Part shown: piece after piece, positions 41,280-63,569 of the stretch | Position numbering within the stretch: position 1 is the first letter of the stretch | Layout: each line of letters begins with the position of its first letter | Assembly: GCF_000012305.1 (NCBI RefSeq) | Contig: NC_007204.1 | Coordinates: forward strand, 1,612,001-1,676,000 | Direction: 5' to 3' | Origin: Psychrobacter arcticus 273-4 | Lineage (GTDB): Bacteria; Pseudomonadota; Gammaproteobacteria; Pseudomonadales; Moraxellaceae | DNA: 64,000 nucleotides | Made by a program: the position numbers and the translations under genes | Notes under the pieces: generated by a model | Told to the model about the DNA's origin: nothing | Databases searched by the model: none | What the model saw: the letters and a program-made list of their open reading frames with translations, nothing else

Positions 41280-41356
41280 GGGCCCATAGCTCAGTTGGTT
41301 AGAGCAGAGGACTCATAATCCTTTGGTCGTAGGTTCAAGTCCTACTGGGCCCACCA
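41280..41356 (+). tRNA. tRNA with CAU anticodon, probably tRNA-Ile2 (lysidine-modified), otherwise elongator Met
   Basis: A full 77-base cloverleaf: acceptor GGGCCCA/TGGGCCC, D arm TAGCTCAGTTGGTTAGAGCA, anticodon stem-loop GAGGACTCATAATCCTT with CAT, T arm GTAGG-TTCAAGT-CCTAC and encoded CCA. Acceptor pairs C4-G69 and C5-G68 are determinants for TilS on tRNA-Ile2, which favours Ile over Met. It is the likely integration site of the following island. Confidence 0.9.
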
Positions 41357-46540: not shown

Positions 46541-47637
46541 GCTGATGCTCCATTACTATGAGATTTGACAAACGGTTTCGCTGTTTTTAAGAAGAAATCG
46601 CGTAATTCTTTAACTTCGCTGTATCTCTCAGCACCCAATTTTTTTCCCATACCTTTTAAGGCATTTAAGCTACTCTGGGATGCATTATCTAAAGTAATGT
46701 CAGAGGACGCTTCGTTTGGAATGGTTTCATCAATTTCAACGTAATTATTGGAAATACCAAGCACTTTTAGTTCCCGTAGCAACATAAAACGCTGTAAGTG
46801 TTGGTTAGCAGTCATAGTAATTAAAACAAGACGCTCCCCCATTCCCCATAATCCTAAGTAACCCTTCGAGCATTTTTTAGATAACGTCTTGGGACCAATA
46901 CAGTAATTCTCGCTCAAAGTACCAATATTCAGAATTTTCACATCTTTAGGCTCTGCATTCGGGAAGTCATCTTTCATATCTATCAAGACTTCACGAACAC
47001 CTATAAAACTAGGGTTATTAGAAACTAATCCACCATCAACGAAATAGTGATTCAGTTTACTAATGAAATGTGGTTTAAAATAGGTTGGTGCAGCTGATGT
47101 AGCCATTGCCGCATCAATCAATTTGATTTCGCCATCAAACGTAAACATGGGATTATGTGGTGTTTTGAAAAATTTTGGTTTACCAGTGGAAAGGTTCAAT
47201 GACGTAATCATTACTCGGCGCTCAAGGTCATCGAACTTGATATTGTCACCGATCATACTTTTCACAGTCTCGTATAAAGGATCACTTCTGTAGATTGGAT
47301 AAAATAGTGTGATCAATTTCTTGAATCTGAAACGTCCTACAGGGAAAATATCAGGTGCACTTTTTTCAAATACTTCCTTTAGTTCTCGCGCACTTTTACC
47401 ACTTGCCAATCCAAGTGCCAAAACACCACCAATAGATGTACCGGTAATCAGGTCAAAGTAGTCACCAATTTTGACATTTTCACGTTTTTCACGCTTTTCA
47501 ATGATTGATTCAAGTTCGGCAAGCAACGTAATAGTAAATAGCCCGCGTACACCCCCACCATTTAACGCTAAAATTTTAATTGGTTCTGAGATTTCTAAAA
47601 GTCCATCCACTGGCTCAGTTTTTTCTAGTGTTGCCAT
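46537..47637 (-). CDS. capV: CBASS effector CapV, cyclic-dinucleotide-activated patatin phospholipase
   Basis: Phospholipase that destroys the inner membrane once activated by cGAMP, killing the infected cell. From ATG at 47637 the protein has 366 residues: oxyanion-hole GGGVRG (27-32), nucleophile elbow GTSIG with Ser68, and catalytic Asp201 in VDGGLVSNNPS. I chose this start (GAGAACA upstream) over a TTG at 47694 that would add 19 residues and begin inside the tandem repeats. First gene of capV-dncV-cap2-cap3. Confidence 0.94.
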   Translation of the reverse strand: MATLEKTEPVDGLLEISEPIKILALNGGGVRGLFTITLLAELESIIEKREKRENVKIGDYFDLITGTSIGGVLALGLASGKSARELKEVFEKSAPDIFPVGRFRFKKLITLFYPIYRSDPLYETVKSMIGDNIKFDDLERRVMITSLNLSTGKPKFFKTPHNPMFTFDGEIKLIDAAMATSAAPTYFKPHFISKLNHYFVDGGLVSNNPSFIGVREVLIDMKDDFPNAEPKDVKILNIGTLSENYCIGPKTLSKKCSKGYLGLWGMGERLVLITMTANQHLQRFMLLRELKVLGISNNYVEIDETIPNEASSDITLDNASQSSLNALKGMGKKLGAERYSEVKELRDFFLKTAKPFVKSHSNGASA

Positions 47638-47690
47638 ATTGTTCTCATTTTTATATATTTTGTTTTTATATTGTGTCGGAAATATATATC

Positions 47691-47768
47691 TCAAGGATTA
47701 ATATCAAGGATTAATATCAAGGATTAATATCAAGGATTAATATCAAGGATTAATATCAAGGATTAATA
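47691..47768. repeat. Six perfect tandem copies of a 13-bp unit in the CBASS leader
   Basis: Unit TCAAGGATTAATA repeated six times without a mismatch, then a partial TCAATTAATT. It lies 54 bases upstream of the capV ATG. On the coding strand each unit reads TATTAATCCTTGA and consecutive units contain TTGATA, which resembles a -35 box. No spacers, so not CRISPR. Confidence 0.95.
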
Positions 47769-47779
47769 TCAATTAATTA

Positions 47780-48634
47780 GGGTCTGTTGAACATTCATAA
47801 TTTCAACCAAAGATAAGCACAAGCAAGTGCCACCGTATTCTCATAACTCTGCTTGAGCTTATCAAATCTTGTGGCAACCGCTCTGTAATGTTTTAGCTTA
47901 GCGAAAGCATTTTCTACTAAGTGGCGAGTTTTGTACAAGTGCCAGTCCATATGGTTGTTGGTGGACTTAGTGTTTCGTCTCCGAGGGATGTTATTGAAGC
48001 AACCCGCTTGTTTGATATGGGTTCGTAACGCATCAGAATCATAGCCCTTATCAGCGCATAGAATGTCTGTATCGCTTAAATCCTTATCAATTAAGTCTGG
48101 TGCCACCTTTACATCATGAGTGGTGCCATCTGATAAGATAAAAGTGATGGGGTTGCCATGAGCATCGACCGCTAAGTGAATCTTGGTCGCGCGTCCTGCC
48201 ACACTTTTACTAATACCTTGCATGTTCTCATGACCAATACTGCTGTGCTGATGCGCTTTAATATGAGTGCCATCGATAAAGACCCACTCACAGTCTGAGT
48301 CTTTGATTAATAACGCAAATAGGGCAATGAGCTTATTACTACGAAACCAACGCTGGTAGGCTTTGTAGACAGTATTGGGCTTACCAAAATGCTCGGGTAA
48401 GTCACGCCAAGGGCAACCAACGCGCATCCGATACAGCACACCTTCAACCGTATTTCTAAGATTCCCTTTGTCATAGATATTGAGTTCTAGTAAGATAGGT
48501 TTTAGTCTTGTCCAGTGTTCATCTTTGAGTATTGTACGAGGCATAGCGAACGAGATCTTTTTTGTGTGAGAACTTAAAAATTACTCGTTTGCTATTTTTT
48601 TGTCAGCAATTTATTCCCAATGTTCAACACGCCC
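47780..48634 (-). mobile_element. IS5-family insertion sequence, 855 bp, complete
   Basis: Ends are imperfect inverted repeats: GGGTCTGTTGAACATT at 47780 and, on the other strand, GGGCGTGTTGAACATT from 48634. Both ends are flanked by TA (47778-47779 and 48635-48636), consistent with insertion into a TTAA site and 2-bp duplication. It carries one transposase gene. Inserted between the DUF262 genes and the CBASS operon. Confidence 0.9.
47795..48544 (-). CDS. IS5-family transposase
   Basis: DDE transposase of 249 residues in a single frame. The N-terminal DUF4096-type domain reads LKDEHWTRLKPILLE, RNTVEGVLYRMRVGCPWRDLP, and the catalytic triad is Asp in VFIDGTHIKAH, Asp in ILCADKGYD and Glu in RHLVENAFAKLKHYRAVATR. 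No frameshift is needed and nothing is missing, so the element may be mobile. The gene fills almost the whole IS. Confidence 0.95.
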   Translation of the reverse strand: MPRTILKDEHWTRLKPILLELNIYDKGNLRNTVEGVLYRMRVGCPWRDLPEHFGKPNTVYKAYQRWFRSNKLIALFALLIKDSDCEWVFIDGTHIKAHQHSSIGHENMQGISKSVAGRATKIHLAVDAHGNPITFILSDGTTHDVKVAPDLIDKDLSDTDILCADKGYDSDALRTHIKQAGCFNNIPRRRNTKSTNNHMDWHLYKTRHLVENAFAKLKHYRAVATRFDKLKQSYENTVALACAYLWLKL

Positions 48635-50676
48635 TAAGCTATACGTTTTAATTTTTGTTCTATATCTTCCTGCAGGATTTTGACCATATCATATCTATGT
48701 GAATCGATATTCTTAATGTTCCAGTTTTCTTGAGCAGTTTGCATCATTAACTCTAACTTTAGACTCAGAGGCGCCATTCTATTACGTTGGCTGTTTAGTA
48801 TCTCTGTCTTCTGTCTAGGAGTATCGTTACTTAATGATGAATTCTCACTGCTACCCATTAAACATAGGTTGCCAAAACTATGCAATTTAGCTTCAGGTAA
48901 TATCTCATTGATTCTAGAAGTCTGAGGTGAGAAGTGCTCTTTAGAACTCTTGAAACTAAATCTAAATTCTTTTTTCTTCGGAATAGAAACATTGCTGTCT
49001 TTCCATAATAAATAATCTAAGTAATTAAAAACAAAAACAGCAACCTTGTCATACCCTAAGTGACTTTCAAAATCATGATTTGGATCGCTTAGTTCATATG
49101 GTAGTACACTGAGCTCTGCACAATCAGCATACATAAATTTTGAATAATCATTGGGTTTAGCTATCAGGTATCGGTTCGCCATGAAAGCTTGCGCAAGACT
49201 TTCTAAAAACCCTAAATAATTTTCTGCATTAATTGGTACTGAGGACTTATCTTGGCTTAACCAATACAGTACTGCAGATAACCAATTTTTGCGAGAGTTG
49301 GTTGGGTAAGAAACATGAAATGCTGATATAAGCATCAAGCAAGATAACGTACTATCATTCAGATGATCTTCGTCACCACTAAAACTATCTACATAATTGC
49401 TTGAGCTGCTCTCATACAATTTATAGCGCTTTAAAGCCCAACTTTCTCTATTACTAGCATTATCTCTTTTAATAATATAACGATCAAAAAGATAGCGAGT
49501 TTTGAGCAAAGTGAAAATAAACTCCTTTACTTTAATAGCTTGTAGATCTTTGAAATTATCAAATGCTGAGAGTAGACTTTTATCATCTAATGCCGGAAGT
49601 TCCTGAATAGAATTTGATGGAGGGTTATGATAAATACGCAGTACATGCATTAAAAAGTTAGGAAAATCTATTACACTATCAAAACGCTCTTGTTTAATAT
49701 CTCGAGTATCAGTTATTCGTTGTTTATCTGGCTTATGTATTGCACCTTTATCAATAGAGGTAGTTAACGATAATGGTTCAATTTTATTATTCTCTCCGTC
49801 AGAACTATTCTTATAATCTTTACCCAAAACGGCAATTGCAATCTTATCAAAGCTATCAATTATAAAATCTTCTGCACTTGAACCAAATATCGCTTTTCGT
49901 TCAGCAACTGAAAAACCTGTTTGCACATAACTATTCATATCTGCGCAGGCAAGCCACACCTTTTGGAGGGTAGCCATAGCTATGTCTTTGTTATGTAAAT
50001 CACTTTCTTGGATAATAGACAGTAGGTGAGCTTTAACAACCTCATGCTTCTCTAACTGTTCACCACGATTATTCATCACTTCAAAGTAGTGAGTAACATC
50101 AGTATTTTTTGGTACTGTTATTCTAAAAATTTGAACATTATTTAATAGATAACTCGCAAAAACTTCTAATTTATTTTCCTGTTTAAATGTTTCTGAAATC
50201 ACTCTTTCGATAATTTTAAAACCATTGAATATTGAGCTGTTAAACTCCTTACTATAGCTAGTTTCAATCAAATTCGAAAATATATTATCAGTACTGGTTT
50301 GACTATTAAATACTTCAAAAAGTCTATTTACAGCTAAATCTGATTTTGGTCGACTTTCAAAACATAAATTAGGTCGCTTATATTCAGGAAAAATTGAGGG
50401 AAGTCGATATTTTAAATAACACGCAAGCAAGCTTAAAGTTGTGAAACGTTGCTGTCCATCTAGTATTTCAAAATAATCTGCTCGTTTGTGTACTACTAGA
50501 CTGCCTAAATAGTATGTTTGAGAATTACCTTTTAAAGAAAAATCCTGAATATCATTTATGAGCTGTCTAATTTGAGCCTCTTCCCAGTCATAGTTACGTT
50601 GATAAACAGGAACTCTGTAATTATCTTCGTTGAGTAGTGTTTGTATTGTCAGGCTATATTCTTTGTTACTACTCAT
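48634..50676 (-). CDS. DUF262/DUF1524 protein (GmrSD-like), second gene of a pair
   Basis: 680 residues. The N-terminal DUF262 domain has RVPVYQRNYDW and the ParB/Srx-like nucleotide motif ILDGQQRFTTLSLL (DGQQR 73-77). The C-terminal part keeps a DUF1524 HNH-type pattern: KEHFSPQ near 595 and SFGNLCLMGSSENSSLSN. GmrSD-type enzymes cleave modified phage DNA using NTP, so defence is likely by family. AAGGA precedes the ATG. Its stop codon TAG is formed by the end of the IS5-family insertion; without it the same position reads TAA, so the protein is complete. Confidence 0.8.
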   Translation of the reverse strand: MSSNKEYSLTIQTLLNEDNYRVPVYQRNYDWEEAQIRQLINDIQDFSLKGNSQTYYLGSLVVHKRADYFEILDGQQRFTTLSLLACYLKYRLPSIFPEYKRPNLCFESRPKSDLAVNRLFEVFNSQTSTDNIFSNLIETSYSKEFNSSIFNGFKIIERVISETFKQENKLEVFASYLLNNVQIFRITVPKNTDVTHYFEVMNNRGEQLEKHEVVKAHLLSIIQESDLHNKDIAMATLQKVWLACADMNSYVQTGFSVAERKAIFGSSAEDFIIDSFDKIAIAVLGKDYKNSSDGENNKIEPLSLTTSIDKGAIHKPDKQRITDTRDIKQERFDSVIDFPNFLMHVLRIYHNPPSNSIQELPALDDKSLLSAFDNFKDLQAIKVKEFIFTLLKTRYLFDRYIIKRDNASNRESWALKRYKLYESSSSNYVDSFSGDEDHLNDSTLSCLMLISAFHVSYPTNSRKNWLSAVLYWLSQDKSSVPINAENYLGFLESLAQAFMANRYLIAKPNDYSKFMYADCAELSVLPYELSDPNHDFESHLGYDKVAVFVFNYLDYLLWKDSNVSIPKKKEFRFSFKSSKEHFSPQTSRINEILPEAKLHSFGNLCLMGSSENSSLSNDTPRQKTEILNSQRNRMAPLSLKLELMMQTAQENWNIKNIDSHRYDMVKILQEDIEQKLKRIA

Positions 50677-50693
50677 TTTTTTATCCTTTTTTA

Positions 50694-52190
50694 TTAAGTT
50701 GGCAGGTAGCCAAGCTTTGTAAACAGCTCTTTGATACCCTCAACATTCGTTACATCTACCTTTTTAGGCTGTGGTAAGGGTTTACTCAAGAAATCGACGG
50801 AAGATAATGATTGCTGTAAACGCTCAAATAAATTATCTGTCCCAATATGCTTTTCAATACTTTCTAAGTAAACACTTTTCTTCTCTAAACGTAATGAATA
50901 AGCCCAAATAAATATATATTCTATGGCTCGCGGTAAATTATGACTTCCAAAACGATCGTAGTAGCATAGGACCAATGCATCAAACATACGCCGTACATAT
51001 TGGTCGCCTCTTCTTGAGCGTCCCTTGTAAGAATACTCAGGCAAGTCGGTGTTAAGCACTAGAAAAATATTAAATGCTGTTGGTCTTTTTGCTACTTCTT
51101 TAATAGATGTGCCTGTCTCAGTGTGATGACAACTTGTTATGGTATAGAGCCATTTCTGAGAATCGCTATCTATAGTTTTATTCAATAATGGCTGGATCAT
51201 CTCCTGATAATGTGTAACCCACTCAAAAAAACGGCGTCCATTAATTAAGGTTTGAGTTAACTGAAATGGGTATGCCATTGCTTGTTGATCAAGTAACCGA
51301 TGTGAATGATGATTATAGCTGTCGACCGTATTGTGAACTATTCTTAAGTTTTCTTGAAAAGGATAACTATCGCTATCTAATTTCATACCTTTGAATACAT
51401 TAACCTCAGACTTAGAGAAGTGCACAGCTTGCTTTCCAAAACTCCAGCGGCGAATAGGGTAAAGATAGTTAGCAAATAAAACCTCTAAACTTTTAGTATT
51501 TTGCTGCTCCCAACATTCAACAATGTTCTGTTTTAAAAGACTTTCAGAGTCAGGGAACTCGCGTAAATGGAATGCTTTTAACAAGTCGTGAGGGTTTAAA
51601 TCAAGTCCACGTGCATTTTGTGAGTCGAAGAACTGAAAAGCTTCTGATAAATAATGAAGTGTCACTTGAACTACTTCACAATGATTAAGTAGAAAATCTA
51701 AAACTTCAGAAGTAAATTCTGGACTGTTCACATGTCTTCTAATAAGTTCATAGTTTCTACTTAAATTTTGCTGAGTTTCACTACAGTCAGGGAGCTCTAT
51801 TTCTAAAGGTGTAAAACTATTAAACTGCTCTGTGAACCTGTTTGACTCAAGAGCTGATTTCATTATTAACAGCAACGTTAATGTACGTTGCTGACCATCA
51901 ACTAAGTCAGCATTTGTCTGATGACTTCCGTTATTAACATATTGGTGTAAAACCACAGTTCCTAAGCGATAAAAATTATCTGGATTATCAGGACTGCCTA
52001 ACCTATGGCCAATTCTTTTACACTGGTAGTACAGATCTGACAATAAATCAACTATGTTTTTTGCTGTCCAGCGATAAGGTCGTTGATAGACTGGTATTAC
52101 TAATTTCTTATCTAAATACTCTTTTTTAGATAAAAATTCTGAAATTTTTATTACTTTGTAGCCTGCACTATTAACATTCGATGGGGTCAT
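50694..52190 (-). CDS. DUF262 protein (GmrS-like), first gene of a pair
   Basis: 498 residues with DUF262 signatures VIPVYQRPYRWTAKNIVDLL and LVDGQQRTLTLLLIM (DGQQR 98-102), plus FFDSQNARGLDLNPHDLLKAFHL, which is standard for the family. I see no C-terminal HNH motif, unlike its neighbour, so this may be the nucleotide-sensing partner. Seventeen bases separate it from the next DUF262 gene, indicating a two-gene operon. AGGTAT precedes the ATG. No exact named system assigned. Confidence 0.8.
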   Translation of the reverse strand: MTPSNVNSAGYKVIKISEFLSKKEYLDKKLVIPVYQRPYRWTAKNIVDLLSDLYYQCKRIGHRLGSPDNPDNFYRLGTVVLHQYVNNGSHQTNADLVDGQQRTLTLLLIMKSALESNRFTEQFNSFTPLEIELPDCSETQQNLSRNYELIRRHVNSPEFTSEVLDFLLNHCEVVQVTLHYLSEAFQFFDSQNARGLDLNPHDLLKAFHLREFPDSESLLKQNIVECWEQQNTKSLEVLFANYLYPIRRWSFGKQAVHFSKSEVNVFKGMKLDSDSYPFQENLRIVHNTVDSYNHHSHRLLDQQAMAYPFQLTQTLINGRRFFEWVTHYQEMIQPLLNKTIDSDSQKWLYTITSCHHTETGTSIKEVAKRPTAFNIFLVLNTDLPEYSYKGRSRRGDQYVRRMFDALVLCYYDRFGSHNLPRAIEYIFIWAYSLRLEKKSVYLESIEKHIGTDNLFERLQQSLSSVDFLSKPLPQPKKVDVTNVEGIKELFTKLGYLPT

Positions 52191-52330: not shown

Positions 52331-52957
52331 CTAAGCCAAAGCATAAATCGCTTTTAAATGAAAAGTATTGAGCTCATCAGTCATACTTGAGCGGTAATAT
52401 ATAGATTCACCAATATTAGATAAAAATCCTTCAACAGCATCTGCTACGTAAGCAAAAGCTTCCATTGGTAAGCTTTGAACGCTCTCCATTCCAATAAACA
52501 ACCCTTTAGTATGGCGTGCTGTCGAAAGTTGATTCACTAGCTTATGTGTTGTTACTTTTATTAAATCTGAGTCAGATTCACCTGTGGCATTTGCCTGAAT
52601 GAACTGAAATGAATTGCCACACTCAAACAGATTTTTGATATCTACAACATCTATGCCAATAATTGTGCTTGCAGAGTTTACATCAAGTAGTTTAATGACA
52701 TTGTTTACTTCATCTGGCTGACATCTAATAATGCCCTCTATAATATCTAGGTGCTCAAATTTATTATTGTCTGTCTGCAAGCCTAATAAAAACCAAGCCC
52801 CTGATTTCTCTTTTAGCCCTAGTAGCGCCTGCTCATCCCAACTATCGCTGATAATAAAACAACCAATAGTAGACTTAGGATAATGATCCATAGTTTGTCG
52901 ATATAGAACAGCACTGGGAATATCATCTATGTACGAGTCGTCAAGCTGGTATTTCAT
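52331..52957 (-). CDS. FtsZ C-terminal-domain-like protein A (no GTPase domain)
   Basis: 208 residues, unrecognised as a named family. Residues ~100-208 follow the second half of FtsZ: GIDVVDIKNLF (FtsZ NVDFADVRTVM, T7 loop and helix), FIQANATGES (GSGVASGED), KGLFIGMESVQSL, MEAFAYVADAVEGFL, then a final strand ending LKAIYALA (VTVVATG). The GGGTGTG nucleotide motif and Rossmann half are absent; residues 1-100 form a different alpha/beta segment with WDEQALLGLK. Paralogue of the gene at 53583. AGAGGAT precedes the ATG. It could bind FtsZ as a decoy or inhibitor; this is inference. Confidence 0.6.
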   Translation of the reverse strand: MKYQLDDSYIDDIPSAVLYRQTMDHYPKSTIGCFIISDSWDEQALLGLKEKSGAWFLLGLQTDNNKFEHLDIIEGIIRCQPDEVNNVIKLLDVNSASTIIGIDVVDIKNLFECGNSFQFIQANATGESDSDLIKVTTHKLVNQLSTARHTKGLFIGMESVQSLPMEAFAYVADAVEGFLSNIGESIYYRSSMTDELNTFHLKAIYALA

Positions 52958-53052
52958 AGTTATATCCTCTGATAATTAATAGCTTTAATGCAGTTAAAAA
53001 TATTAAATTTTGGCGCTAGTTAAATCTCATTCGGTTTTGTTTGGCGCTGTTA

Positions 53053-53493
53053 TTAACCACTCAGTTGCTTTAGCATTTTCATAGTGCTTATATCATAACT
53101 GCCTGCGTAGAACTGATACAAAAGTTGCTCAAAAACACAATCGTTACCAGCTGCAAAGGCAAATAAAGTTAGCGAAGATTGTAGCTTTAGATTATCCGGT
53201 GTACCAAAGATATCTAAAGCGCTTTTATCAGGATGCAGCAGCAGTAATTCAGCACACTCTATTAATCGTGCTCCAAGCACCTCATGCTGCAAATACGCTT
53301 TTGCTTGCTCCAGACTCTCTATTCCAAAGCGTCGAGCTCTTACACTGTGCCCTAACCCTTTCACTTGTGGAAAAATAAACCACATCCAATGCGTACGTTT
53401 ATGACCTTGGGTCAGCTCTGTAATAACCGATGGATAAATCATATCTTGAGCTTGGATAAAATCATCAAATAAACTTTTATCTATCGTTGTCAT
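53053..53493 (-). CDS. DUF1810 family protein
   Basis: 146 residues matching DUF1810 in order: FDDFIQAQDMIYPSVITEL, KRTHWMWFIFPQVKGLGHS, RRFGIESLEQAKAYL, LGARLIECAELLLLH, ALDIFGTPDNLKLQSSLTLF and CVFEQLLYQFYAG. The family has no firmly established biochemical role that I can cite. I chose ATG at 53493 (AAGGAG 8 bases upstream) over a GTG nine bases earlier that overlaps the ribosome binding site. It sits between two FtsZ-like paralogues, all on the same strand, so it is probably co-transcribed. Confidence 0.85.
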   Translation of the reverse strand: MTTIDKSLFDDFIQAQDMIYPSVITELTQGHKRTHWMWFIFPQVKGLGHSVRARRFGIESLEQAKAYLQHEVLGARLIECAELLLLHPDKSALDIFGTPDNLKLQSSLTLFAFAAGNDCVFEQLLYQFYAGSYDISTMKMLKQLSG

Positions 53494-53582
53494 TTTCTGC
53501 ACTCCTTGCGATTTAATTAATGAGCGTTTGCCTACCTGACACGCTCACAGCGTGAATAAATCCATGTATAGTCAATACTAGG

Positions 53583-54260
53583 CTAACCAGCCACATATAT
53601 CGCTCCCATCCAGCAATGGTCAGACTTGTCAATCATCCTATTACCGTAAAACACTTCTGAATCGTCAGTAATCCAGCTTTCAATCGCAGTTGTGACGCTA
53701 AAAAATTCATCAAGAGATAACTTATGATTACGTTCAATATGAAGCATCATATACTCAATACTAAGACCTTTAGCAATTTGATTGAGCAGATGATTAGCGG
53801 CACTCTTTACTTGTTCTGGGTCTGGTATGTCCGTTACCCTAGCCTGTATAAACTTGGCAGGCTTCTCAGCCCCACAGGATTTCTTGATATCATTAACATC
53901 TATACCAACTTTATCCCGATCAGATAGTACTGATTCAAATACAGTTGTTACCTGCCCGACTTCATCCGCTTTGCAAATAATAATACCGTCTATAACCTCG
54001 AATCTATCAATGTGCTTATCTGTGGTTTGTAGCGCAAACAATGTGCCCAAACCTGTTTGCTGTTTTAACGCTAGCAGTGACTGTTCATCCCAGCCATTTT
54101 CTATAACAATAAACCCAACCTCAGACAGGCGATAGCTATCTGCTTGTGGCCTATATAAAGTAGTTAAAGGTATGGGCTTTATCTGAAGCTCATCATTACA
54201 CTCTTCGTTAATATCGTTTTTTAGAGTCTGTTTATCTTCAAAGATACTATCTACTGTCAT
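53583..54260 (-). CDS. FtsZ C-terminal-domain-like protein B (no GTPase domain)
   Basis: 225 residues, paralogue of the gene at 52331. They share GFIVIENGWDEQSLLALKQ and a following VIDGIIICKADEV segment. Residues ~118-225 track FtsZ's C-domain closely: GIDVNDIKKSCG, FIQARVTDIPDPE, SLDEFFSVTTAIESWITDD (FtsZ RLDEFETVGNTIRAFASDN), EVFYGNRMID and a last strand ending AIYVAG. No GGGTGTG. A ~35-residue acidic N-terminal extension is unique to this copy. GAGGAAC precedes the ATG; 27 bases after the WYL gene. Function unknown. Confidence 0.62.
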   Translation of the reverse strand: MTVDSIFEDKQTLKNDINEECNDELQIKPIPLTTLYRPQADSYRLSEVGFIVIENGWDEQSLLALKQQTGLGTLFALQTTDKHIDRFEVIDGIIICKADEVGQVTTVFESVLSDRDKVGIDVNDIKKSCGAEKPAKFIQARVTDIPDPEQVKSAANHLLNQIAKGLSIEYMMLHIERNHKLSLDEFFSVTTAIESWITDDSEVFYGNRMIDKSDHCWMGAIYVAG

Positions 54261-54287: not shown

Positions 54288-55379
54288 TTAATTACTGTTA
54301 TAAAGCTGCATCCCACTCTCTAGACGCTCAAAAATAATTTTTTTTAACGCCAAGGGTTCAATCACGACAGACAGCTGTGACATACTCACCAGCCAGTCTT
54401 GTAAGCGCTGAGTATTAGCAACCGTAGCGCTGACTTGATTCCAAGTATCATCTACAATAGTAATCTGTTGATCTTTCGATAGTGGACGCTCATAAAGATG
54501 CTGACAGGCGTATTTCTGTACTTTTAAAACCAAGTTGATTTCAATATTTTTACCAAACTCTAGCTTGCCCAGCTTCTGTAAGCTATCTAATGTAAAAACG
54601 TCACGCCCTACCCAGTCTGGTATTGGCTCATCTATGACTACTGCCTCGGTAATACGGTTGACTGCAAAATTGCGATGCTCCTCTAACAGTTTATTATCAT
54701 CCATATGATCATCTACTGAATTAAAACCTGTGAGGTAGACCATATTGTCAATAAAAATCAGTCCTTTGGGATATACCACTCTTTGAGTTGGCTGTCCTTC
54801 CCATTTGTTTTGATAGCGTATTTGTAATGGACGACTCTGTAGCAAAGCTTGATGGATACTAGAAAGCACGTCACTATCAAGCTTTGGTGCTTGCACGATA
54901 CTAGGTAAGGTTATGAGATGATCTTGCCATTGCCCTAACGGACTTTGGTGAAATTTATCTTTGTCTTGTCGACGTAGTTGAGTGAGCTGATCTGTGATAC
55001 TTTGCTTAAAAGACACTGGCAAATAGTTTGCGGTATATTTATCCAGCATCTCCCAAAAGAACACTGTTTGCTCGTTAATGATATCGATACTAAAGCTGGG
55101 TTCAATGTAAAACCGTGCCGTCTTGCCGCTGATATTCTTGCCCCATGCTGGCACCCGGATTAATGCATTACTATAGAAGATATCGTTAAAGATTTGATTT
55201 AAGCCAATCAGATCGTTCTCTAAGTTTTTACGCTCATTTGTATAATTATCAGGATCATCACCGTAGTTTTGCATAAGCTCTGTCAGTGAAACAGCATCAG
55301 CTTCACTCCGAGGTAAACATTGATATAAAGCAAATAGACGTGCTGACTTTGTATAGCTGGCAATGGGATATGTGGGCAT
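54288..55379 (-). CDS. WYL-domain transcriptional regulator
   Basis: 363 residues in the usual three-part layout: N-terminal winged helix (SARLFALYQCLPRSE ... LTELMQNYG ... ERKNLENDLIGL, residues ~10-65), a WYL domain (LQIRYQNKWEGQPTQ, VVYPKGLIFIDNMVYLTGFN, residues ~180-250) and a C-terminal WCX extension (INLVLKVQKYACQHLYERP). Relatives such as BrxR and CapW repress defence operons until a ligand or nucleic acid is sensed. It lies 52 bases after the PP2C gene and may control both its own operon and the divergent SMC operon. Confidence 0.87.
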   Translation of the reverse strand: MPTYPIASYTKSARLFALYQCLPRSEADAVSLTELMQNYGDDPDNYTNERKNLENDLIGLNQIFNDIFYSNALIRVPAWGKNISGKTARFYIEPSFSIDIINEQTVFFWEMLDKYTANYLPVSFKQSITDQLTQLRRQDKDKFHQSPLGQWQDHLITLPSIVQAPKLDSDVLSSIHQALLQSRPLQIRYQNKWEGQPTQRVVYPKGLIFIDNMVYLTGFNSVDDHMDDNKLLEEHRNFAVNRITEAVVIDEPIPDWVGRDVFTLDSLQKLGKLEFGKNIEINLVLKVQKYACQHLYERPLSKDQQITIVDDTWNQVSATVANTQRLQDWLVSMSQLSVVIEPLALKKIIFERLESGMQLYNSN

Positions 55380-56804: not shown

Positions 56805-59800
56805 ATGCTAGAAATGCGCGACGACCAAAATCTCGACAGTATGTCGACTGCAGAGCATGGTCTAAATATAAGTAATGAATTAGTTTCCAACAACCAACCA
56901 CTAGAAGCAGCTAAAAAGAAAAATAAACTATTAAGAGTAGCTCTATTAAATAGTTACCTGAAAGGACAAAGCCACCTTATTGAGGTAGATAGCAATACTA
57001 TTCTTACTGGTCGTAATAGTGCCGGTAAAACAACGTTAATGGGCGCTATCGTGCCGTTTTTTGGCACCAAGCTAAGTAGTATTTCCAAAAAATCTGAAGT
57101 ACATAAGAGTTTTGTAGAGTTCTACCTCCCTTATGCAAACAGCTATATCGTTTATGAATACATAAGAGAGGGTCAAAAAAAGTGCGTCTTGATCAGGAAT
57201 AGTGGTGGTGTTCAAGTTTTCAACTTCATTGATTCAGAATATAAAGAGAAGTGGTTTGTCAGTATGGACTTGCAGGGTAAGCGCTCTTTTCATCAGTTTG
57301 AGGCGGTAAAAGCGAACATTGAGTCAGACGGGTTATACATTTCTAACAATGTGCGCCAGTTGTCATACGAGGCTATTATTAGTAACTGCCCTCCTCATCG
57401 TGTTAAAGCATCTATACGCTCAACAGATAGCCTCAGAAGTATCTCTGCACTACGTCATGACTTTTCATTAGCGACAGGGAAAGGGAGTTTCTATGGTTTT
57501 GCTTCAATCGCTAGCAACATATTACAGACAAAGCTTGAATTTAATGAGATATGCGAGTTCTTAGTAGAGGCGATGAAGGCGGAGAATAAGGTTAGAGACA
57601 ATGAGATTATTATCGACTCTAAAGGGGTCGATACCGCTAAGTGGGTACGTCAACGGGATACTTGGGGCAAGATTGAAGTGTTACGACCACAGTTTGATCG
57701 TTTATCTTTAGCAGTCAAAATGAATGCCTCTAATCAAAATGAATTATCTACAGACATTAGCATCATAGGTGGTCTACTGATTGAGCTGAAGAACAAAATA
57801 AGAAACAACAAGGACTTACTGAACCAATATCAAAACTCTATCAATCTACTTAAAAGTGATATCAATGAAGTATCTGCTCAATGGAGACGAGACCAAGGTG
57901 ACTTAGACGCTCAATTAAGTCGTCTGACTCTTGATATTGATAAGCTTGAGGCGCGTAAATTTGAGTTTGAAAATGGTATTGCTGGCAAGCATAAACCCGT
58001 GAATGAATTAAAAGAGCTGTCATCACAGATACAAGCTCTCAACACTCAAAAAGACCATCAAGAAAGCCTTTTAAATGACTATGAAGATAAAGAGCGTGAG
58101 GCTGCTGCAGTCATCAAACAAATAGAATCCATACTTCAAAAAGAATTGCTGGCAATTGAAAACAGTCTAACTCAGAAACTTGCCAGCATTGAACATGAGA
58201 TAACTAAGGCAGACGGTGTATACGAGCATGCTTATTCTGAATTAATGAAATCACAATACGCTCATATAGAATCTATTCGCGATAGTGCCAAAATTCAGAT
58301 AGATAATATTCGTGACAAGCTACAACAGCTAAAAATAGATAAAGCCCTTCTTGATCAATCTGTCACTAGTATTGATATCAGCCTTAAATATAAGCAAGAC
58401 TTGGAGCAAGTTGCTGGCGAGATACGTGCTAAACAAAAGCAGTTAAGCCGAGATATAGAAAACGAAAGCATAGCTAAAGAGCAAAGCCGTGCCGCGCAAG
58501 CAGAAAATAGCAACCTTCAAAACGAGCTTATCGAAAATTCACGAAGTATAGAGAGGTTTCAAGCAGATTATAAAAAGCTTCAGGACTTATTAAAAGGCGA
58601 TACCCTATTTAGCTTTTTGGTACAAAGCGAAGATGATCAGAGCCTAGTTGCTACAGTAGACCAAGTTAGACGAGCCATAGACCCCGCATTACTTAATCGT
58701 ACCGACCTAGAACCGTCATGGCTAGACGCAGATAGTAGCGATAACCATATCCAAACTGGTGAGTCCTTGTATGGTCTGATCATAGATACTGCAAAAATTG
58801 ATAACTCAAAAAGTCAGTCTCGCCGTGAAATCACTCAGCAGATGCTTAGCATTGATGCTCAAATATCTAGTAAAAACGAGAGAAAGAAAGAAGTTGAGTC
58901 TTTATTACTTGCCAGCCAAAAAAGAATAAAACTTGCAAGAGATGAGAGCTATCAAGCTACCGTCAATATTACTAAAACTAAAGAATCAATAGAAAGCTTA
59001 AATCAAAGTAGCAAGCAATTAGAGCTAAGAGCCAAAGCAGATCTTGAAGACAGAAAAACTAAGCTTGCTCAGCAAGTAGCAGCGTTAGCAACCGAAATTG
59101 CTGGTAAGCAAAATGAGCTAACTAATATAGAGCTCGGAGTTCATGAAAACATTAATGATATCAAGCAACAGGATAAGATTAGACTTAAGCAATTAGAAGC
59201 CAGCCAAACTCAAAGAAAAGAGCAACTCAACCAAGATAAGAAAGCGGCTACCGTTAAGGCGCAACAACAGAGCACTAGTGCTCGTCAACGTCGAGACAAT
59301 GCTATTAATGCAAACGGCTATGATGATAATGTGATAATTGGTGTTAGGGATACCATCAAAGATATTACCGCTCAGCTCAAACGTGCTGAATCTGCTCAGT
59401 TGCGCGTTACCCTGTATGATGAATTTTTAGCTGAAGAGTACACACAAGCTAGTGCTTACACTCAAAAACACAGTGAGCTAAAGTCTATTGTTATCACCAA
59501 TACTCAAGCTTTCAATGAGATTATTGAGGAAAAAACCAGGAAAGCTGGTAGTTTATCTGAGGAAGCCTCTAGCATTGAGCAAGACTTGACGGTAGCCAAT
59601 GCTGATCTTGAGCGACTAGAAACGACCCTTAAAGCCGCTAACAATACCTTTATAAGTACATTAGTACCAAATCAGCCACCACCCGCAGAGTTTGCCTCAA
59701 AAACCCTATTTGAGCTACATGATACTGCGCTATTCGTACTCGATAAATCTAAAGAGACTATTGAGAAGACTAGGAACACTATCAAAGAAGGTATCAACAT

Positions 59801-60740
59801 ACTTACCGCTATAAAATCACCATTTATCAATAACGAGAGTATGTTTGAGACCTTACTTTCCAATGACAGCACAGTAGGCCGTCCTGATGACTATAACTGG
59901 TTCATACAAGCGCGTATCTTTACTGAGTATTTAAACAATGAGCATGAGACTAGAAAAGAGGTCATCATCAATCACTATCTGGTTGAAGCTCATAAAATTC
60001 GCGATTTTAAATTCAAACTAGACCAAGCGCATCATAGCCTAACCACATTCTCAAACCGTATTAATCGTAGCTGTAGAGAGGTCTGTGATAAATTGGGCGC
60101 GTTGGCTATCGAGAATCTAAAGATTACGCTAACCTCTAGTATTAGAGATAACGAATGGTATTCGGTACTCAATACCTTTACCGAGGCATTCGAAGAATGG
60201 GTTAACAAGGATATTCATGACAGGTATCGTATGCCTGATGAAGAACTTTTAATGAAGCTTGACCAAGTACAAAGCTATATTGGTCAAAACAAAATGAACA
60301 TCAAACTGTCAGAACAGTTCTTTGTCAGCTTGACGGTGAAACAAAGAGGTAAAGAGGAGCAGCATACCGACCGTGCCAAATCTTTCCCTGATATCGGCTC
60401 AAATGGCACCATGCGTATTGCCCAGCTGATTATTTATATTGCCCTACTCTCAGTCATATCGACCACTGATACTAGTGAGCTCAAATTCTTTATTGATGAA
60501 GTGGGTGTGCTTGACCCTACCAATACCCAAGAGCTATTAGGCTTACTGCAAAAACTAGGTATTTCAGCCATGTGCGCCGCACCAGAGAATCCTCATGACG
60601 CTGTGATCCCCTTATTCTCTAACAACATTGGCTGTGCTTATGATGTTAACACTTATAGATATGAGCTATCACAGACAGATGATATGTACTCGCTAACTCA
60701 GGACCACCAGTTAGAGCAATATGGAGTATTCGAAGAATGA
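56805..60740 (+). CDS. SMC-like ATPase of a Wadjet/MksB-type system (JetC-like)
   Basis: Large DNA-loop-extruding ATPase of 1311 residues. Walker A GRNSAGKTTLMG lies at 69-76 and two long coiled-coil arms (~330-640 and ~680-1000, Gln/Lys/Glu rich) are interrupted by a hinge-like part. The C-terminal head has FPDIGSNGTMRIAQLI as signature near 1197 and Walker B LKFFIDEVGVLDP near 1230. I chose ATG at 56805 (CAGGAT upstream) over a TTG at 56778. It is the first gene of four overlapping genes; Wadjet-type systems recognise and cleave circular plasmids. Confidence 0.85.
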   Translation: MLEMRDDQNLDSMSTAEHGLNISNELVSNNQPLEAAKKKNKLLRVALLNSYLKGQSHLIEVDSNTILTGRNSAGKTTLMGAIVPFFGTKLSSISKKSEVHKSFVEFYLPYANSYIVYEYIREGQKKCVLIRNSGGVQVFNFIDSEYKEKWFVSMDLQGKRSFHQFEAVKANIESDGLYISNNVRQLSYEAIISNCPPHRVKASIRSTDSLRSISALRHDFSLATGKGSFYGFASIASNILQTKLEFNEICEFLVEAMKAENKVRDNEIIIDSKGVDTAKWVRQRDTWGKIEVLRPQFDRLSLAVKMNASNQNELSTDISIIGGLLIELKNKIRNNKDLLNQYQNSINLLKSDINEVSAQWRRDQGDLDAQLSRLTLDIDKLEARKFEFENGIAGKHKPVNELKELSSQIQALNTQKDHQESLLNDYEDKEREAAAVIKQIESILQKELLAIENSLTQKLASIEHEITKADGVYEHAYSELMKSQYAHIESIRDSAKIQIDNIRDKLQQLKIDKALLDQSVTSIDISLKYKQDLEQVAGEIRAKQKQLSRDIENESIAKEQSRAAQAENSNLQNELIENSRSIERFQADYKKLQDLLKGDTLFSFLVQSEDDQSLVATVDQVRRAIDPALLNRTDLEPSWLDADSSDNHIQTGESLYGLIIDTAKIDNSKSQSRREITQQMLSIDAQISSKNERKKEVESLLLASQKRIKLARDESYQATVNITKTKESIESLNQSSKQLELRAKADLEDRKTKLAQQVAALATEIAGKQNELTNIELGVHENINDIKQQDKIRLKQLEASQTQRKEQLNQDKKAATVKAQQQSTSARQRRDNAINANGYDDNVIIGVRDTIKDITAQLKRAESAQLRVTLYDEFLAEEYTQASAYTQKHSELKSIVITNTQAFNEIIEEKTRKAGSLSEEASSIEQDLTVANADLERLETTLKAANNTFISTLVPNQPPPAEFASKTLFELHDTALFVLDKSKETIEKTRNTIKEGINILTAIKSPFINNESMFETLLSNDSTVGRPDDYNWFIQARIFTEYLNNEHETRKEVIINHYLVEAHKIRDFKFKLDQAHHSLTTFSNRINRSCREVCDKLGALAIENLKITLTSSIRDNEWYSVLNTFTEAFEEWVNKDIHDRYRMPDEELLMKLDQVQSYIGQNKMNIKLSEQFFVSLTVKQRGKEEQHTDRAKSFPDIGSNGTMRIAQLIIYIALLSVISTTDTSELKFFIDEVGVLDPTNTQELLGLLQKLGISAMCAAPENPHDAVIPLFSNNIGCAYDVNTYRYELSQTDDMYSLTQDHQLEQYGVFEE

Positions 60741-61360
60741 AAGAGCATGAGATATTAAGAATGATAATGCAGAACAAGCTTATCTGCCCTATCAGCGAAC
60801 CTGAAGCCTATAAGTGGTTAAAGGATAGTGAAGATAACGTTAATCGTATCTCAATCCATCTTGAGCCCTTTGGTGTCAAGCTAGTCTCTATGTGTGATGG
60901 CGACGTGTATGCTGGCTTGAACACCGTACCATCCGAGTCTGACAAAAAGGCCATCTCTAAGCAGTTCCATGACATATACAACAATATTGGGCCTATCATT
61001 GAAATGCTGACCTGTCTTGCCAGCGCTGATGAACATAATAATGCTCTGGTAATGGGCGATAAGCTCAAACAAGCTGAGTTAGTATTAACTGCTAATGACA
61101 ATAAGCATTTTGAGAGTATGCTCAATCAAGTCTCTGAAATTACAGGTGCTACCAAAAAGCCCAATGATCAACAGGTAGAAGCTCTACTTGAGCGACTAAG
61201 AAAGCATGACATTGTCATCTTGTCTAATAGTGCTCAAAAAATATACCGTGTGACCGGCATGATTAGTTATATTAGCCAAATCTTTGAATACATCACCGAA
61301 AACCTCTTTGATGATTTTAATGAAGAGGAGATTGAACTGCAGCAAGGGCTCAGCTTATGA
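60737..61360 (+). CDS. MksE/JetB-like winged-helix subunit (DUF4194-like)
   Basis: 207 residues between the SMC and kleisin-like genes, overlapping both by 4 bases (ATGA), so stoichiometric coupling is likely. Helix-rich with winged-helix features at the N-terminus (ISEPEAYKWLKDSEDN, VKLVSMCDGDVYAGL) and the C-terminus (LLERLRKHDIVILSNSAQKIYRVTGMISY), as in JetB/MksE. Sequence identity to the family is low, so the assignment rests on size, position and fold pattern. Confidence 0.65.
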   Translation: MKEHEILRMIMQNKLICPISEPEAYKWLKDSEDNVNRISIHLEPFGVKLVSMCDGDVYAGLNTVPSESDKKAISKQFHDIYNNIGPIIEMLTCLASADEHNNALVMGDKLKQAELVLTANDNKHFESMLNQVSEITGATKKPNDQQVEALLERLRKHDIVILSNSAQKIYRVTGMISYISQIFEYITENLFDDFNEEEIELQQGLSL

Positions 61361-62685
61361 GCGAGGGTATAAAACTTACCGAGGACAAGATCAAAACCTT
61401 GGGCCGGGCTATTACGGACAAATCTGATGTGCTCTTTGAGTCCTACTCTCCTGAAGGGTGTTTCGGTGCTGTAAACACAAGCTCCAAACAGTATCAAGTA
61501 CTGCGTGACAGTGGCGTCATAAGCATTAATGCCAATAGTATTACGCTTGGATCTAGTTTTAGAGATATTTTGCGAACGGTTGATCAAAAGTCCTATCGTA
61601 CGCACACTATGCCAGACGTAGAGGACTGGAAGCAAAATATCCATCATTCCATTCAAATGGCACAAGCTGCATCAGATTCATTTGATGAAACGCACGATGA
61701 GATGATGCACTTAGCGAATATCCGAGATGAGGCCAATATGCTATCTGAGGCTTTAGGCCGTGAGATGTCGAATATTGAGTACATTATTAACTCAGACCTT
61801 AATAATACGCCTAACATAAAAGCTAAGCGTATTATCCTTGAAAGCTTGAATAAGAAAATTAAATCGCAGATCCAAAAAACAGCTATTTTAAGTCGTGAAG
61901 AGCTTTATAAGCTCCATGGTGACTATACTAAAGCCGCTGTCATATTGGATGAATACCTGTCTGACTCTATCGTTAAATTCAACCATGAAATGGGCGTTCA
62001 TCTAGATAAGACCATCCTGCTTATCGATAAGTTAAAAAGAGATCAGAACCGTCAAAATAAGATACTGTGGCAACTGCATAAAGCATTGAGAAACGAGCAG
62101 TTTATCCCTAAACAAATGGGGCTTGAGTTAAGAGATATCGAAAGCATAGGCTTGGCATTTGGCGGGATAGAGGTTAGTGATAATCTTTATAACATTGAGT
62201 TAAGCGATGACAGTTATCTTCTTGCTACTATCATGGGTAAACTTGCCAGCAGCAAACCCATTATCAAAGGTAAAGACATAAATATTTATGAGGGTGAGTA
62301 TGTTGAATCGACAGACAAAACTGAACAACAAAAACCCTCGGCTGAAAAGCTTTGGGTTCTAAAATATCTGTCCAATAACAACACCGATGACCTGAGTAAA
62401 TGTTACTCGGTTAGAGAGTATTGGCAAACTGCTGGCTTGACCCATATCGTCGAATATAAGGCCTTTTTAGCTTTAGTGCTTAAGGTCTGTGGTAGCAACT
62501 TTAAGAGCGATCATATTATTAAGAAAAAAGACACTTGCTATTGGAAGCTTTATCTAAAAAAGCGGTGGTTATCCGATACTTGCGACACTCTGTATATAAC
62601 AGATGCTAAGTATGTTAGATGTAATACCACATCTAACGAACCTAGTGAGAACGAATTATGGACGCTAAACTCGCTCAACGCTTAG
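61357..62685 (+). CDS. Kleisin-like subunit (MksF/JetA-like)
   Basis: 442 residues: an N-terminal winged-helix-like part (KQYQVLRDSGVISINANSITLG), a long helical middle (~95-240) like the MukF/JetA dimer bundle, and a C-terminal part that seems to form another winged helix (KDTCYWKLYLKKRWL). It should bridge the SMC heads and bind the small subunit. It overlaps the preceding gene by 4 bases and the following one by 28. In canonical Wadjet this gene comes first; here it is third. Confidence 0.6.
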   Translation: MSEGIKLTEDKIKTLGRAITDKSDVLFESYSPEGCFGAVNTSSKQYQVLRDSGVISINANSITLGSSFRDILRTVDQKSYRTHTMPDVEDWKQNIHHSIQMAQAASDSFDETHDEMMHLANIRDEANMLSEALGREMSNIEYIINSDLNNTPNIKAKRIILESLNKKIKSQIQKTAILSREELYKLHGDYTKAAVILDEYLSDSIVKFNHEMGVHLDKTILLIDKLKRDQNRQNKILWQLHKALRNEQFIPKQMGLELRDIESIGLAFGGIEVSDNLYNIELSDDSYLLATIMGKLASSKPIIKGKDINIYEGEYVESTDKTEQQKPSAEKLWVLKYLSNNNTDDLSKCYSVREYWQTAGLTHIVEYKAFLALVLKVCGSNFKSDHIIKKKDTCYWKLYLKKRWLSDTCDTLYITDAKYVRCNTTSNEPSENELWTLNSLNA

Positions 62686-63569
62686 AGAGCAGTAAGACTT
62701 TGCTTGATATACAGCAAAAGCTACAGGCTGGTGAGGATACTATCGCTTTTAGAACGCCTAGCAATGTTTTTGCGCTACTGGTTATTTATGATGCAGATAT
62801 AGGTCACAAAATAGGACGTAATATACATATAAAGCCTGGTGGTTGGAACCGTATTGTTAGCCTTATTAAAGCTCATACTAAGATAGATATAGCGCACGAC
62901 GACATAACGGCAATGAAAACCAAAGATCGTGTCGACAACAGCTTGACTATGTCCAATGAGAAGATGCTGAGTAAAGCGCCTACAAAAGGATTCTTTGAAT
63001 TAAGAATGCTTGGTTCTGATAATGATTTGGCGCTTGCCACCCAGAACTATATTCATAGAGCCTCTAAAGAAAACGCTTACCTAGGTGTTCACAGTGATGA
63101 TTTGATGCAGTGGAATATTGATAATCTTATTGTCATAGAGAACTTCACTAGCTTTTGTCGTTTTACTGAGCAAGACTTAGCATTAATAGAAGGCTGGCAT
63201 GGTCAAACTACCGCTTTAGTCTATAGAGGCCACAAGGCTAGTAATACTACTCTAATTTACGAAAGCCTCAAAAACACTAAGTGCTCTAAATATATCTTTG
63301 CTGACTATGATTTCGCTGGTCTAAGCATCGCACAATCTATCGGAGAATCAATTTTAGCTACTGGCTTTATAATGCCACAAGATCCTTGGCTCAATAACGA
63401 TGAGATGCTAGATATGAATAAGAAGCAAACTAGGCTTGTACAGTCACATATCACTGTTAGCCACCCTGCTCTGCAGCCTTACTATAATCATCTGAAGGAA
63501 AATTTTTTAGCAATAACTCAAGAAGCTTTAGTCGCTAGGTCGATACCTTTAACCATTGTTAGTGTTTGA
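62658..63569 (+). CDS. Toprim nuclease subunit (JetD/MksG-like)
   Basis: 303 residues. The C-terminal half is a Toprim domain related to topoisomerase VI A: Glu161 in NLIVIENFTSF and the acidic pair Asp216/Asp218 in IFADYDFAGLSIAQS. JetD cuts plasmid DNA after the SMC complex has loaded. The N-terminal half (~1-110) has DNA-binding character (LKAHTKIDIAHDD-type winged helix) and no recognised DUF3322 motif. It overlaps the kleisin-like gene by 28 bases; last gene of the operon. Confidence 0.78.
   Translation: MDAKLAQRLESSKTLLDIQQKLQAGEDTIAFRTPSNVFALLVIYDADIGHKIGRNIHIKPGGWNRIVSLIKAHTKIDIAHDDITAMKTKDRVDNSLTMSNEKMLSKAPTKGFFELRMLGSDNDLALATQNYIHRASKENAYLGVHSDDLMQWNIDNLIVIENFTSFCRFTEQDLALIEGWHGQTTALVYRGHKASNTTLIYESLKNTKCSKYIFADYDFAGLSIAQSIGESILATGFIMPQDPWLNNDEMLDMNKKQTRLVQSHITVSHPALQPYYNHLKENFLAITQEALVARSIPLTIVSV

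What the first reader, a model, noticed from the sequence alone, without database searches (positions are those of the whole stretch)
56805..63569. Wadjet/Mks-like operon with reordered genes and divergent subunits
The canonical order is kleisin (JetA), small winged-helix (JetB), SMC (JetC), nuclease (JetD). Here it is SMC, small subunit, kleisin, nuclease, with overlaps of 4, 4 and 28 bases. Toprim acidic residues and both Walker motifs are kept, but the kleisin and small subunits look far from JetA/JetB. This may be a separate subtype of the SMC-Toprim anti-plasmid systems.
Basis: partly seen in the sequence, partly recalled or inferred. Interest (0 to 1): 0.72.

Follow-up and report, generated by a model that had tools for sequence, protein, structure and literature searches.

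The report
SMC-first Wadjet-like defence operon
This is a four-gene DNA-motor-plus-nuclease operon that probably detects and cuts invading circular DNA such as plasmids; it belongs to a lineage, also carried by large plasmids and one phage, that the searched catalogue of such systems does not recognise.

Summary
Confirmed: window 56805-63569 holds SMC, KITE, kleisin-like and Toprim genes on one strand, overlapping by 4, 4 and 28 bases, with ATPase and Toprim motifs intact. It is not a local shuffle. The same order is complete in 22 of 38 chromosomal loci and 12 of 20 plasmid/phage loci examined, including a 209-kb cyanophage. PADLOC's Wadjet I, II and III models match the window proteins only weakly (best E 4e-4), while control type I and II operons are identified strongly (no type III control was at hand). 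Profile comparison puts SMC, KITE and nuclease nearest the MksB, MksE and MksG of an F-E-B-G operon sharing the DUF7281 nuclease, then Wadjet I. The kleisin is assigned mainly by position, size and architecture. A lineage SMC gene is in 13 of 105 Psychrobacter genomes; here it sits with CBASS and GmrSD genes near a tRNA and integrase. Most likely it is a separate lineage of SMC-guided plasmid nuclease. Function is untested; one intact copy lies on a 40-kb plasmid, which does not fit a simple size rule; and a 2025 survey's data file, which might list this lineage, could not be read.

The parts
56805..60740 (+). SMC ATPase (1311 aa, PF12128/DUF3584), MksB/JetC-like
   Evidence: PF12128 E 2.4e-90; Walker A, signature and Walker B intact; profile match MksB 99.8, JetC1 97.7
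60737..61360 (+). KITE subunit (207 aa), MksE/JetB-like
   Evidence: Profile match MksE 93.9, JetB1 51.5; PF21980 in 15 of 17 family members
61357..62685 (+). Presumed kleisin (442 aa), MksF/JetA position
   Evidence: No family match; best kleisin profile MksF, 9.8 to 27.5, or 69.3 with a merged set; low-confidence secondary structure with winged-helix-like ends. Inferred, not shown
62658..63569 (+). Toprim nuclease (303 aa, PF23947/DUF7281), MksG/JetD-like
   Evidence: PF23947 E 4.3e-20; E161 and D216xD218 in 38 of 38 aligned nucleases; profile match MksG 95.4, JetD1 88.9
54288..55379 (-). WYL-domain gene, divergent neighbour; possible regulator (speculative)
   Evidence: PF13280 and PF25583 over cut-off; a WYL gene also stands divergently beside the plasmid copy L150
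55432..56289 (-). PP2C-like phosphatase gene between the WYL gene and the operon; role unknown
   Evidence: PF13672 E 1.2e-9
41280..41356 (+). tRNA-Met at the presumed left edge of the island
   Evidence: ARAGORN; the same flank stands beside the operon in L077
41540..42811 (+). Tyrosine integrase next to the tRNA
   Evidence: PF00589 E 2.1e-18

Best explanation
A lineage of the Mks/Wadjet group, distinct from the three catalogued Wadjet types, with the fixed order SMC, KITE, kleisin, Toprim nuclease. By analogy with Wadjet I, paired SMC motors held by kleisin and KITE would load on DNA, extrude it using ATP and, when a small circle has been fully extruded, switch on the Toprim nuclease to cut it. 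Shown here: the genes, intact ATPase and Toprim motifs, homology of three of the four subunits to Mks/Jet subunits, the conserved order, patchy presence in an island and on mobile elements. Inferred: that the third protein is the kleisin, complex assembly, loop extrusion, cleavage, and that plasmids are the target.
For: Same four genes in the same order in 22 of 38 chromosomal and 12 of 20 plasmid/phage loci. SMC, KITE and nuclease each pick their Mks and Jet counterparts, and no other tested subunit class, as best profile matches. Catalytic residues conserved. Patchy in the genus, 13 of 105 genomes, and placed with CBASS and GmrSD genes near an integrase and tRNA. Weak or no match to Wadjet I-III models while type I and II controls match strongly. 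Ten of 11 plasmids with a complete operon are 107 kb or larger, in line with the reported escape of circles above about 100 kb (PMC10586767, passages).
Against: No activity was tested. The kleisin is not demonstrated: an SMC coiled coil scored 36.7 against it, above MksF alone. One apparently intact operon lies on a 40-kb plasmid, pACI-b25a. The large-plasmid trend is confounded by large plasmids holding more genes. Being carried by plasmids at all sits awkwardly with a purely anti-plasmid role. The lineage's own clade is weakly supported at its base (87/43), and the tree tool flagged long branches. AlphaFold models were too poor to use.
Confidence: 0.65

Rival explanations
1. The complex acts on phages or on competing mobile elements in general (for example circularised phage genomes) rather than on plasmids in particular, serving conflict between elements when carried by megaplasmids or a phage.
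For: It lies in an island with CBASS and GmrSD genes, and complete copies are on 11 plasmid records and one cyanophage.
Against: The closest characterised machines, Wadjet I and MksBEFG, restrict plasmids (PMC10586767 and PMC10123090, passages). No phage data here.
Confidence: 0.2
2. It is a chromosome-organising condensin of the MksBEF or MukBEF kind, with the nuclease as an accessory.
For: Four relatives lack the nuclease (L082, L085, L088, L090), three of their four genomes have no DUF7281 match at all, and G639 keeps the operon at the same chromosomal site as nuclease-bearing relatives G679 and G566.
Against: Patchy in the genus (13 of 105), degraded in one genome (L002/L076) and with a split or shortened nuclease in two more (L077, L078), on mobile elements, and with catalytic residues kept wherever aligned (38 of 38). 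These suit defence better than housekeeping.
Confidence: 0.1
3. It is an ordinary Wadjet I, II or III operon whose genes were merely reshuffled.
For: Same domain composition; weak nuclease and SMC matches to Jet models (E 4e-4 and 7e-4); SMC-JetC1 profile match 97.7 and nuclease-JetD1 88.9.
Against: No Jet model recognises it while type I and II controls are recognised; the order is shared by many genomes and elements; the SMC tree separates six JetC1 rows at 100/100; all three alignable subunits score higher with Mks.
Confidence: 0.03

Closest known systems
MksBEFG-like operons with a DUF7281 nuclease, order F-E-B-G (loci L134, L025, L029 and relatives)
   Same: KITE, SMC and nuclease are the best profile matches (93.9, 99.8, 95.4); the nuclease carries the same Pfam domain.
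   Different: SMC is last but one rather than first and about 917-936 aa against about 1,220-1,340; kleisin match weak (9.8 to 27.5). That this group equals P. aeruginosa MksBEF is recalled, not tested.
Wadjet type I (JetABCD)
   Same: Same four kinds of subunit; SMC-JetC1 97.7, nuclease-JetD1 88.9, KITE-JetB1 51.5.
   Different: Order A-B-C-D, DUF3375 kleisin, a longer nuclease with a DUF3322 N-terminus; separate in the SMC tree at 100/100.
Wadjet types II and III
   Same: SMC plus Toprim nuclease; a few family members match JetD2 (4 of 15, best 2.1e-6), JetD3 (best 4.1e-6) or JetC3 (best 1e-4) models weakly.
   Different: Type II profile matches are poor (SMC 25, nuclease 17, one sequence each). 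Type III was compared through PADLOC models only.
MukBEF
   Same: SMC-KITE-kleisin core, and the nuclease-less relatives have the same composition.
   Different: Order F-E-B, no nuclease; profile match only on the SMC C-terminal head (66), none for MukE (2.1) or MukF (0.1), one E. coli sequence each.

Membership tests
Wadjet (as a functional class) | SMC, KITE, kleisin and Toprim nuclease encoded together | tested here: inconclusive
   SMC, KITE and nuclease met; kleisin inferred only
Wadjet (as a functional class) | Restricts plasmids by cutting circular DNA | not testable with these tools
   Needs an assay
Wadjet types I, II or III | Proteins recognised by the type's own profile models | tested here: not met
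   Window best E 4e-4; family best 2.1e-6; type I and II controls E 0 to 1.5e-134; no type III control
Wadjet types I, II or III | Gene order kleisin, KITE, SMC, nuclease | tested here: not met
   SMC, KITE, kleisin, nuclease in the window and in 22 of 38 chromosomal and 12 of 20 mobile loci
MksBEFG | Homology of SMC, KITE and nuclease to MksB, MksE, MksG | tested here: met
   99.8, 93.9 and 95.4; MksE Pfam model matched by 15 of 17 KITEs
MksBEFG | Kleisin homologous to MksF | tested here: inconclusive
   9.8 and 27.5 with MksF; 69.3 with a merged set whose two halves do not match each other
MksBEFG | Gene order F-E-B-G | tested here: not met
   SMC first; published order mksFEBG (PMC10123090, passages)
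MukBEF | MukF and MukE homology, no nuclease | tested here: not met
   MukF 0.1, MukE 2.1; nuclease present

The most novel reading that the evidence does not exclude
A fourth, unnamed, SMC-first Wadjet lineage carried by large mobile elements (megaplasmids, islands, a 209-kb cyanophage) as a weapon against smaller rival circles, with carriers protected by their own size. The same lineage sheds its nuclease, giving natural snapshots of a plasmid-defence machine turning into a condensin.
Probability: 0.35. Interest if true: 0.8.

Novelty: new variant of a known kind. Interest (0 to 1): 0.62.

Why it matters
A 2025 paper still counts three Wadjet types (PMC12647877, passages). Here is a further lineage, annotated in the public records as 'ATP-binding protein', 'hypothetical protein' or 'DUF2399 domain-containing protein', which PADLOC's models do not recognise, so surveys based on such models will undercount SMC-based plasmid defence. 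Its presence on conjugative plasmids and a phage makes the size-escape idea testable, since carriers must survive their own system. The nuclease-less relatives, one of them beside nuclease-bearing relatives of the same genus, make the proposed path from defence system to condensin testable. A divergent kleisin and a shorter nuclease also offer a new comparison for how extrusion triggers cutting.

Tried and rejected
Sequence-profile searches of the PDB gave nothing relevant: kleisin one designed helical protein at E 0.1, nuclease none up to E 1, KITE nine unrelated proteins at 0.29-0.65, SMC none up to 1e-5, the limit used. AlphaFold models of kleisin and nuclease, made from the window and L002 sequences only, were poor (mean pLDDT 34.3 and 37.9); fold searches with them would be meaningless and were not run. 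Ranking single sequences against the kleisin profile did not separate known kleisins: 17 of them fell at ranks 4 to 98 of a list drawn from 215 proteins of 350-560 aa. Five viral-contig scans found no relative. No exact repeat of 15 bases or more of the tRNA end was found to mark the right edge of the island up to position 80000. The MukF family was absent from 85 class genomes, so the MukBEF comparison rests on E. coli alone. The first tree lost L025, L026, L029, L134 and one JetC1 row (L135) to a too-strict Walker pattern; it gave the lineage 97/92 with 20 rows. It was rebuilt with 40 rows, leaving out MukB, JetC2, six of 12 JetC1 rows, L021, L026, L002/L076, near-duplicates L072-L074, broken plasmid copies and loci fetched later. 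Rows left out of alignments, of those the local profiles had found: A1 L028, L072; A2 L021, L025, L028, L029, L030, L072, L077, L078, L089; A3 L019, L072, L083; A4 L002, L025-L027, L029, L030, L072, L089; and from each of them the further near-duplicates L073-L076. Considered and rejected: a local gene shuffle of a known Wadjet type, and a chance ORF arrangement.

Full report
1. Observation. The SMC matches PF12128 (DUF3584, E 2.4e-90), the nuclease PF23947 (DUF7281, 4.3e-20) and the small gene PF21980 (MksE, 1.1e-3, below its cut-off); the third gene matches no Pfam or PADLOC family, and NCBIfam gives only matches far below cut-off for all four. The ATPase motifs of the SMC and E161, D216 and D218 of the Toprim domain are intact.

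2. The family. The window lies in a 2.65-Mb single-contig genome; the nearest named record is Psychrobacter immobilis. DUF7281 is found in 13 of 369 genomes of the class; a match to the window's SMC in 14 of 398 of the phylum and 14 of 105 of the genus. One genus hit (G788) has another architecture, which leaves 13 with this lineage's SMC; neighbouring genes were checked in 12 of them (G768 was not fetched beyond its SMC). Local profiles of the four proteins were run over 38 chromosomal and 20 plasmid/phage loci.

3. Gene order. SMC-KITE-kleisin-nuclease on one strand is complete in 22 of the 38 chromosomal loci; these include L077, whose nuclease frame is split, and L078, whose nuclease ends early. 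L002 and L076, one and the same record, lack the start of the SMC gene. L082, L085, L088 and L090 have the first three genes and no nuclease. L020 and L028 stop at contig ends and L023 holds only nuclease remnants. The other seven have other orders: kleisin-KITE-SMC-nuclease (L025, L026, L027, L029, L134) and nuclease-SMC followed by two genes of kleisin and KITE size (L030, L089). Of the 20 mobile loci 12 are complete; L150 has an insertion element in the SMC gene, L164 has split SMC and kleisin frames, L159, L160 and L162 are fragments, and the Bacteroidota plasmids L154, L155 and L166 have another order. No locus that matched all four profiles had any other order; but the KITE and kleisin profiles come from this lineage, so that is partly built in.

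4. Placement. Profile-profile comparison gave, as probabilities in percent, SMC: MksB 99.8, JetC1 97.7, MukB 66, JetC2 25; KITE: MksE 93.9, JetB1 51.5, MukE 2; nuclease: MksG 95.4, JetD1 88.9, JetD2 17. With more sequences: KITE-MksE 92.0, KITE-JetB1 22.9, nuclease-MksG 97.1, nuclease-JetD1 94.6, nuclease-JetD2 7.5. 'Mks' here means the F-E-B-G operons of L134, L025 and relatives; the L134 KITE matches PF21980 at 1.9e-28 and its nuclease is also DUF7281. That this group is the MksBEF of P. aeruginosa is recalled, not tested. In the SMC-head tree (40 rows) six JetC1 rows stand apart at 100/100, the F-E-B-G group has 100/99 and the L030/L089 pair 100/100. The lineage here has only 87/43; without the window's own Psychrobacter subgroup, 95/96. 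The tool flagged several long branches. An earlier tree with fewer F-E-B-G rows gave the lineage 97/92.

5. Kleisin. This is the weakest assignment. The third protein scored 9.8 and 27.5 with MksF, 69.3 over colinear residues 1-233 with MksF merged with two Bacteroidota kleisins, 0.3-0.7 with JetA1 and 0.1 with MukF. Against this, SMC coiled coils scored 36.7 and 15.6, and the two halves of the merged set do not match each other (0.1). Accepted kleisins fare no better among themselves (MksF-JetA1 3.6 and 7.0, MukF-JetA1 0.3), so sequence cannot decide. Position in the operon, size and a low-confidence secondary structure with winged-helix-like ends and long helices between favour a kleisin.

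6. Known types. PADLOC gives the window proteins no Jet match better than 4e-4, yet identifies control proteins of L128 as type I and of L133 as type II, with best models at E 0 to 1.5e-134. It also holds type III models, for which I had no positive control. Across the family the best Jet matches are 6.6e-5 (19 SMCs), 2.1e-6 (15 nucleases), 2.3e-3 (17 KITEs) and none (21 kleisins). MksE is matched by 15 of 17 KITEs at E <= 0.01.

7. Setting. From tRNA-Met (41280-41356) and an integrase (41540-42811) the window runs through CBASS genes, a transposase, two GmrSD-type proteins, and WYL and PP2C genes to the operon; beyond it is a malic enzyme gene. In L077 the same tRNA-Met flank (77.8% over 5.3 kb) lies directly beside the operon; L002 has a 52-base match to the tRNA end about 4.4 kb from its operon, though no tRNA gene was called there; in L071-L075 the flanks of the operon do not match those in the window. 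So the site is shared by some carriers and not by others. Loss of the SMC start in L002 and split or shortened nucleases in L077 and L078 look like the decay of dispensable genes (inference).

8. Mobile carriers. Complete operons lie on cyanophage Dfl-JY45 (209 kb; the only one of 50,697 phage records to match) and on 11 plasmid records, three of them typed conjugative (L152, L163, L167). Ten of the 11 plasmids are 107 kb or larger; pACI-b25a is 40 kb. Two Acinetobacter plasmids of 50 and 20 kb, in the same replicon cluster as a 142-kb carrier, keep only fragments. Wadjet spares circles above about 100 kb (PMC10586767, passages), so the trend fits; but it is confounded because larger plasmids hold more genes, and the 40-kb plasmid goes against it. 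The plasmid searches found 28 and 40 records with an SMC match; I examined 19 plasmid regions, not all records.

9. Nuclease loss. Ten genomes carrying this lineage were searched for DUF7281: three (G639, G734, G724) have no match and a fourth (G689) only one below the cut-off on another contig; these are the genomes of L085, L088, L090 and L082. In one genus G639 lacks the gene while G679 and G566 carry it, and flanks on both sides are collinear. Nuclease-less SMCs are interleaved with nuclease-bearing ones in the tree, which implies more than one loss, or a regain; some of the forks there are weak.

10. Literature. Papers were seen as search listings and passages only. PMC12647877 (passages) says that Wadjet exists in three types; PMC10123090 (passages) gives mksFEBG as the conserved order. 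PMC7617805 (passages) collected Wadjet-group operons by iterative profiles with an optional nuclease; its data file could not be read here and may list this lineage. Searches of the held open-licence library for DUF3584, Wadjet with kleisin, subtype and gene order, 'Wadjet IV' and variants, DUF7281 and Dfl-JY45 and kleisin/KITE/Toprim combinations listed no paper that I could recognise as describing it.

11. Verdict. The operon is real, conserved and placed: a new variant of the SMC-Toprim kind, nearest to Mks and probably acting like Wadjet. Mechanism and target are inferred.

Noticed in passing
window 43016-47694: A CBASS set: Jab peptidase, E2-E1 fusion, DncV-like cyclase and patatin phospholipase genes, all on the minus strand.
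   Followed up: partly
window 48634-52190: Two adjacent GmrSD/DUF262-type proteins, the second with a DUF7834 domain, next to an IS5-like transposase gene at 47795-48544.
   Followed up: no
window 52331-54260: Two proteins of 208 and 225 aa that look like paralogues and match no Pfam family over its cut-off flank a DUF1810 gene, in line with the WYL and PP2C genes; possibly a module of its own.
   Followed up: no
L139 6980-13335: A 209-kb cyanophage, Dfl-JY45, carries the complete four-gene operon in the same order, annotated as hypothetical proteins.
   Followed up: partly
L082, L085, L088, L090: Relatives with SMC, KITE and kleisin genes but no nuclease, interleaved in the tree with nuclease-bearing ones; G639 differs from same-genus G679 and G566 at a collinear site.
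   Followed up: partly
L030 and L089: A third architecture with the DUF7281 nuclease gene first, then a 956-1022 aa SMC, then genes of kleisin and KITE size that the profiles here do not recognise.
   Followed up: partly
L150 804-15727: On a conjugative plasmid, a copy of the operon with an insertion element inside the SMC gene stands next to Tn7-like transposition genes and a divergent WYL gene.
   Followed up: no
L158 1073-7547: A 40-kb Acinetobacter plasmid holds an apparently intact operon, unexpected if small circles are the target.
   Followed up: partly
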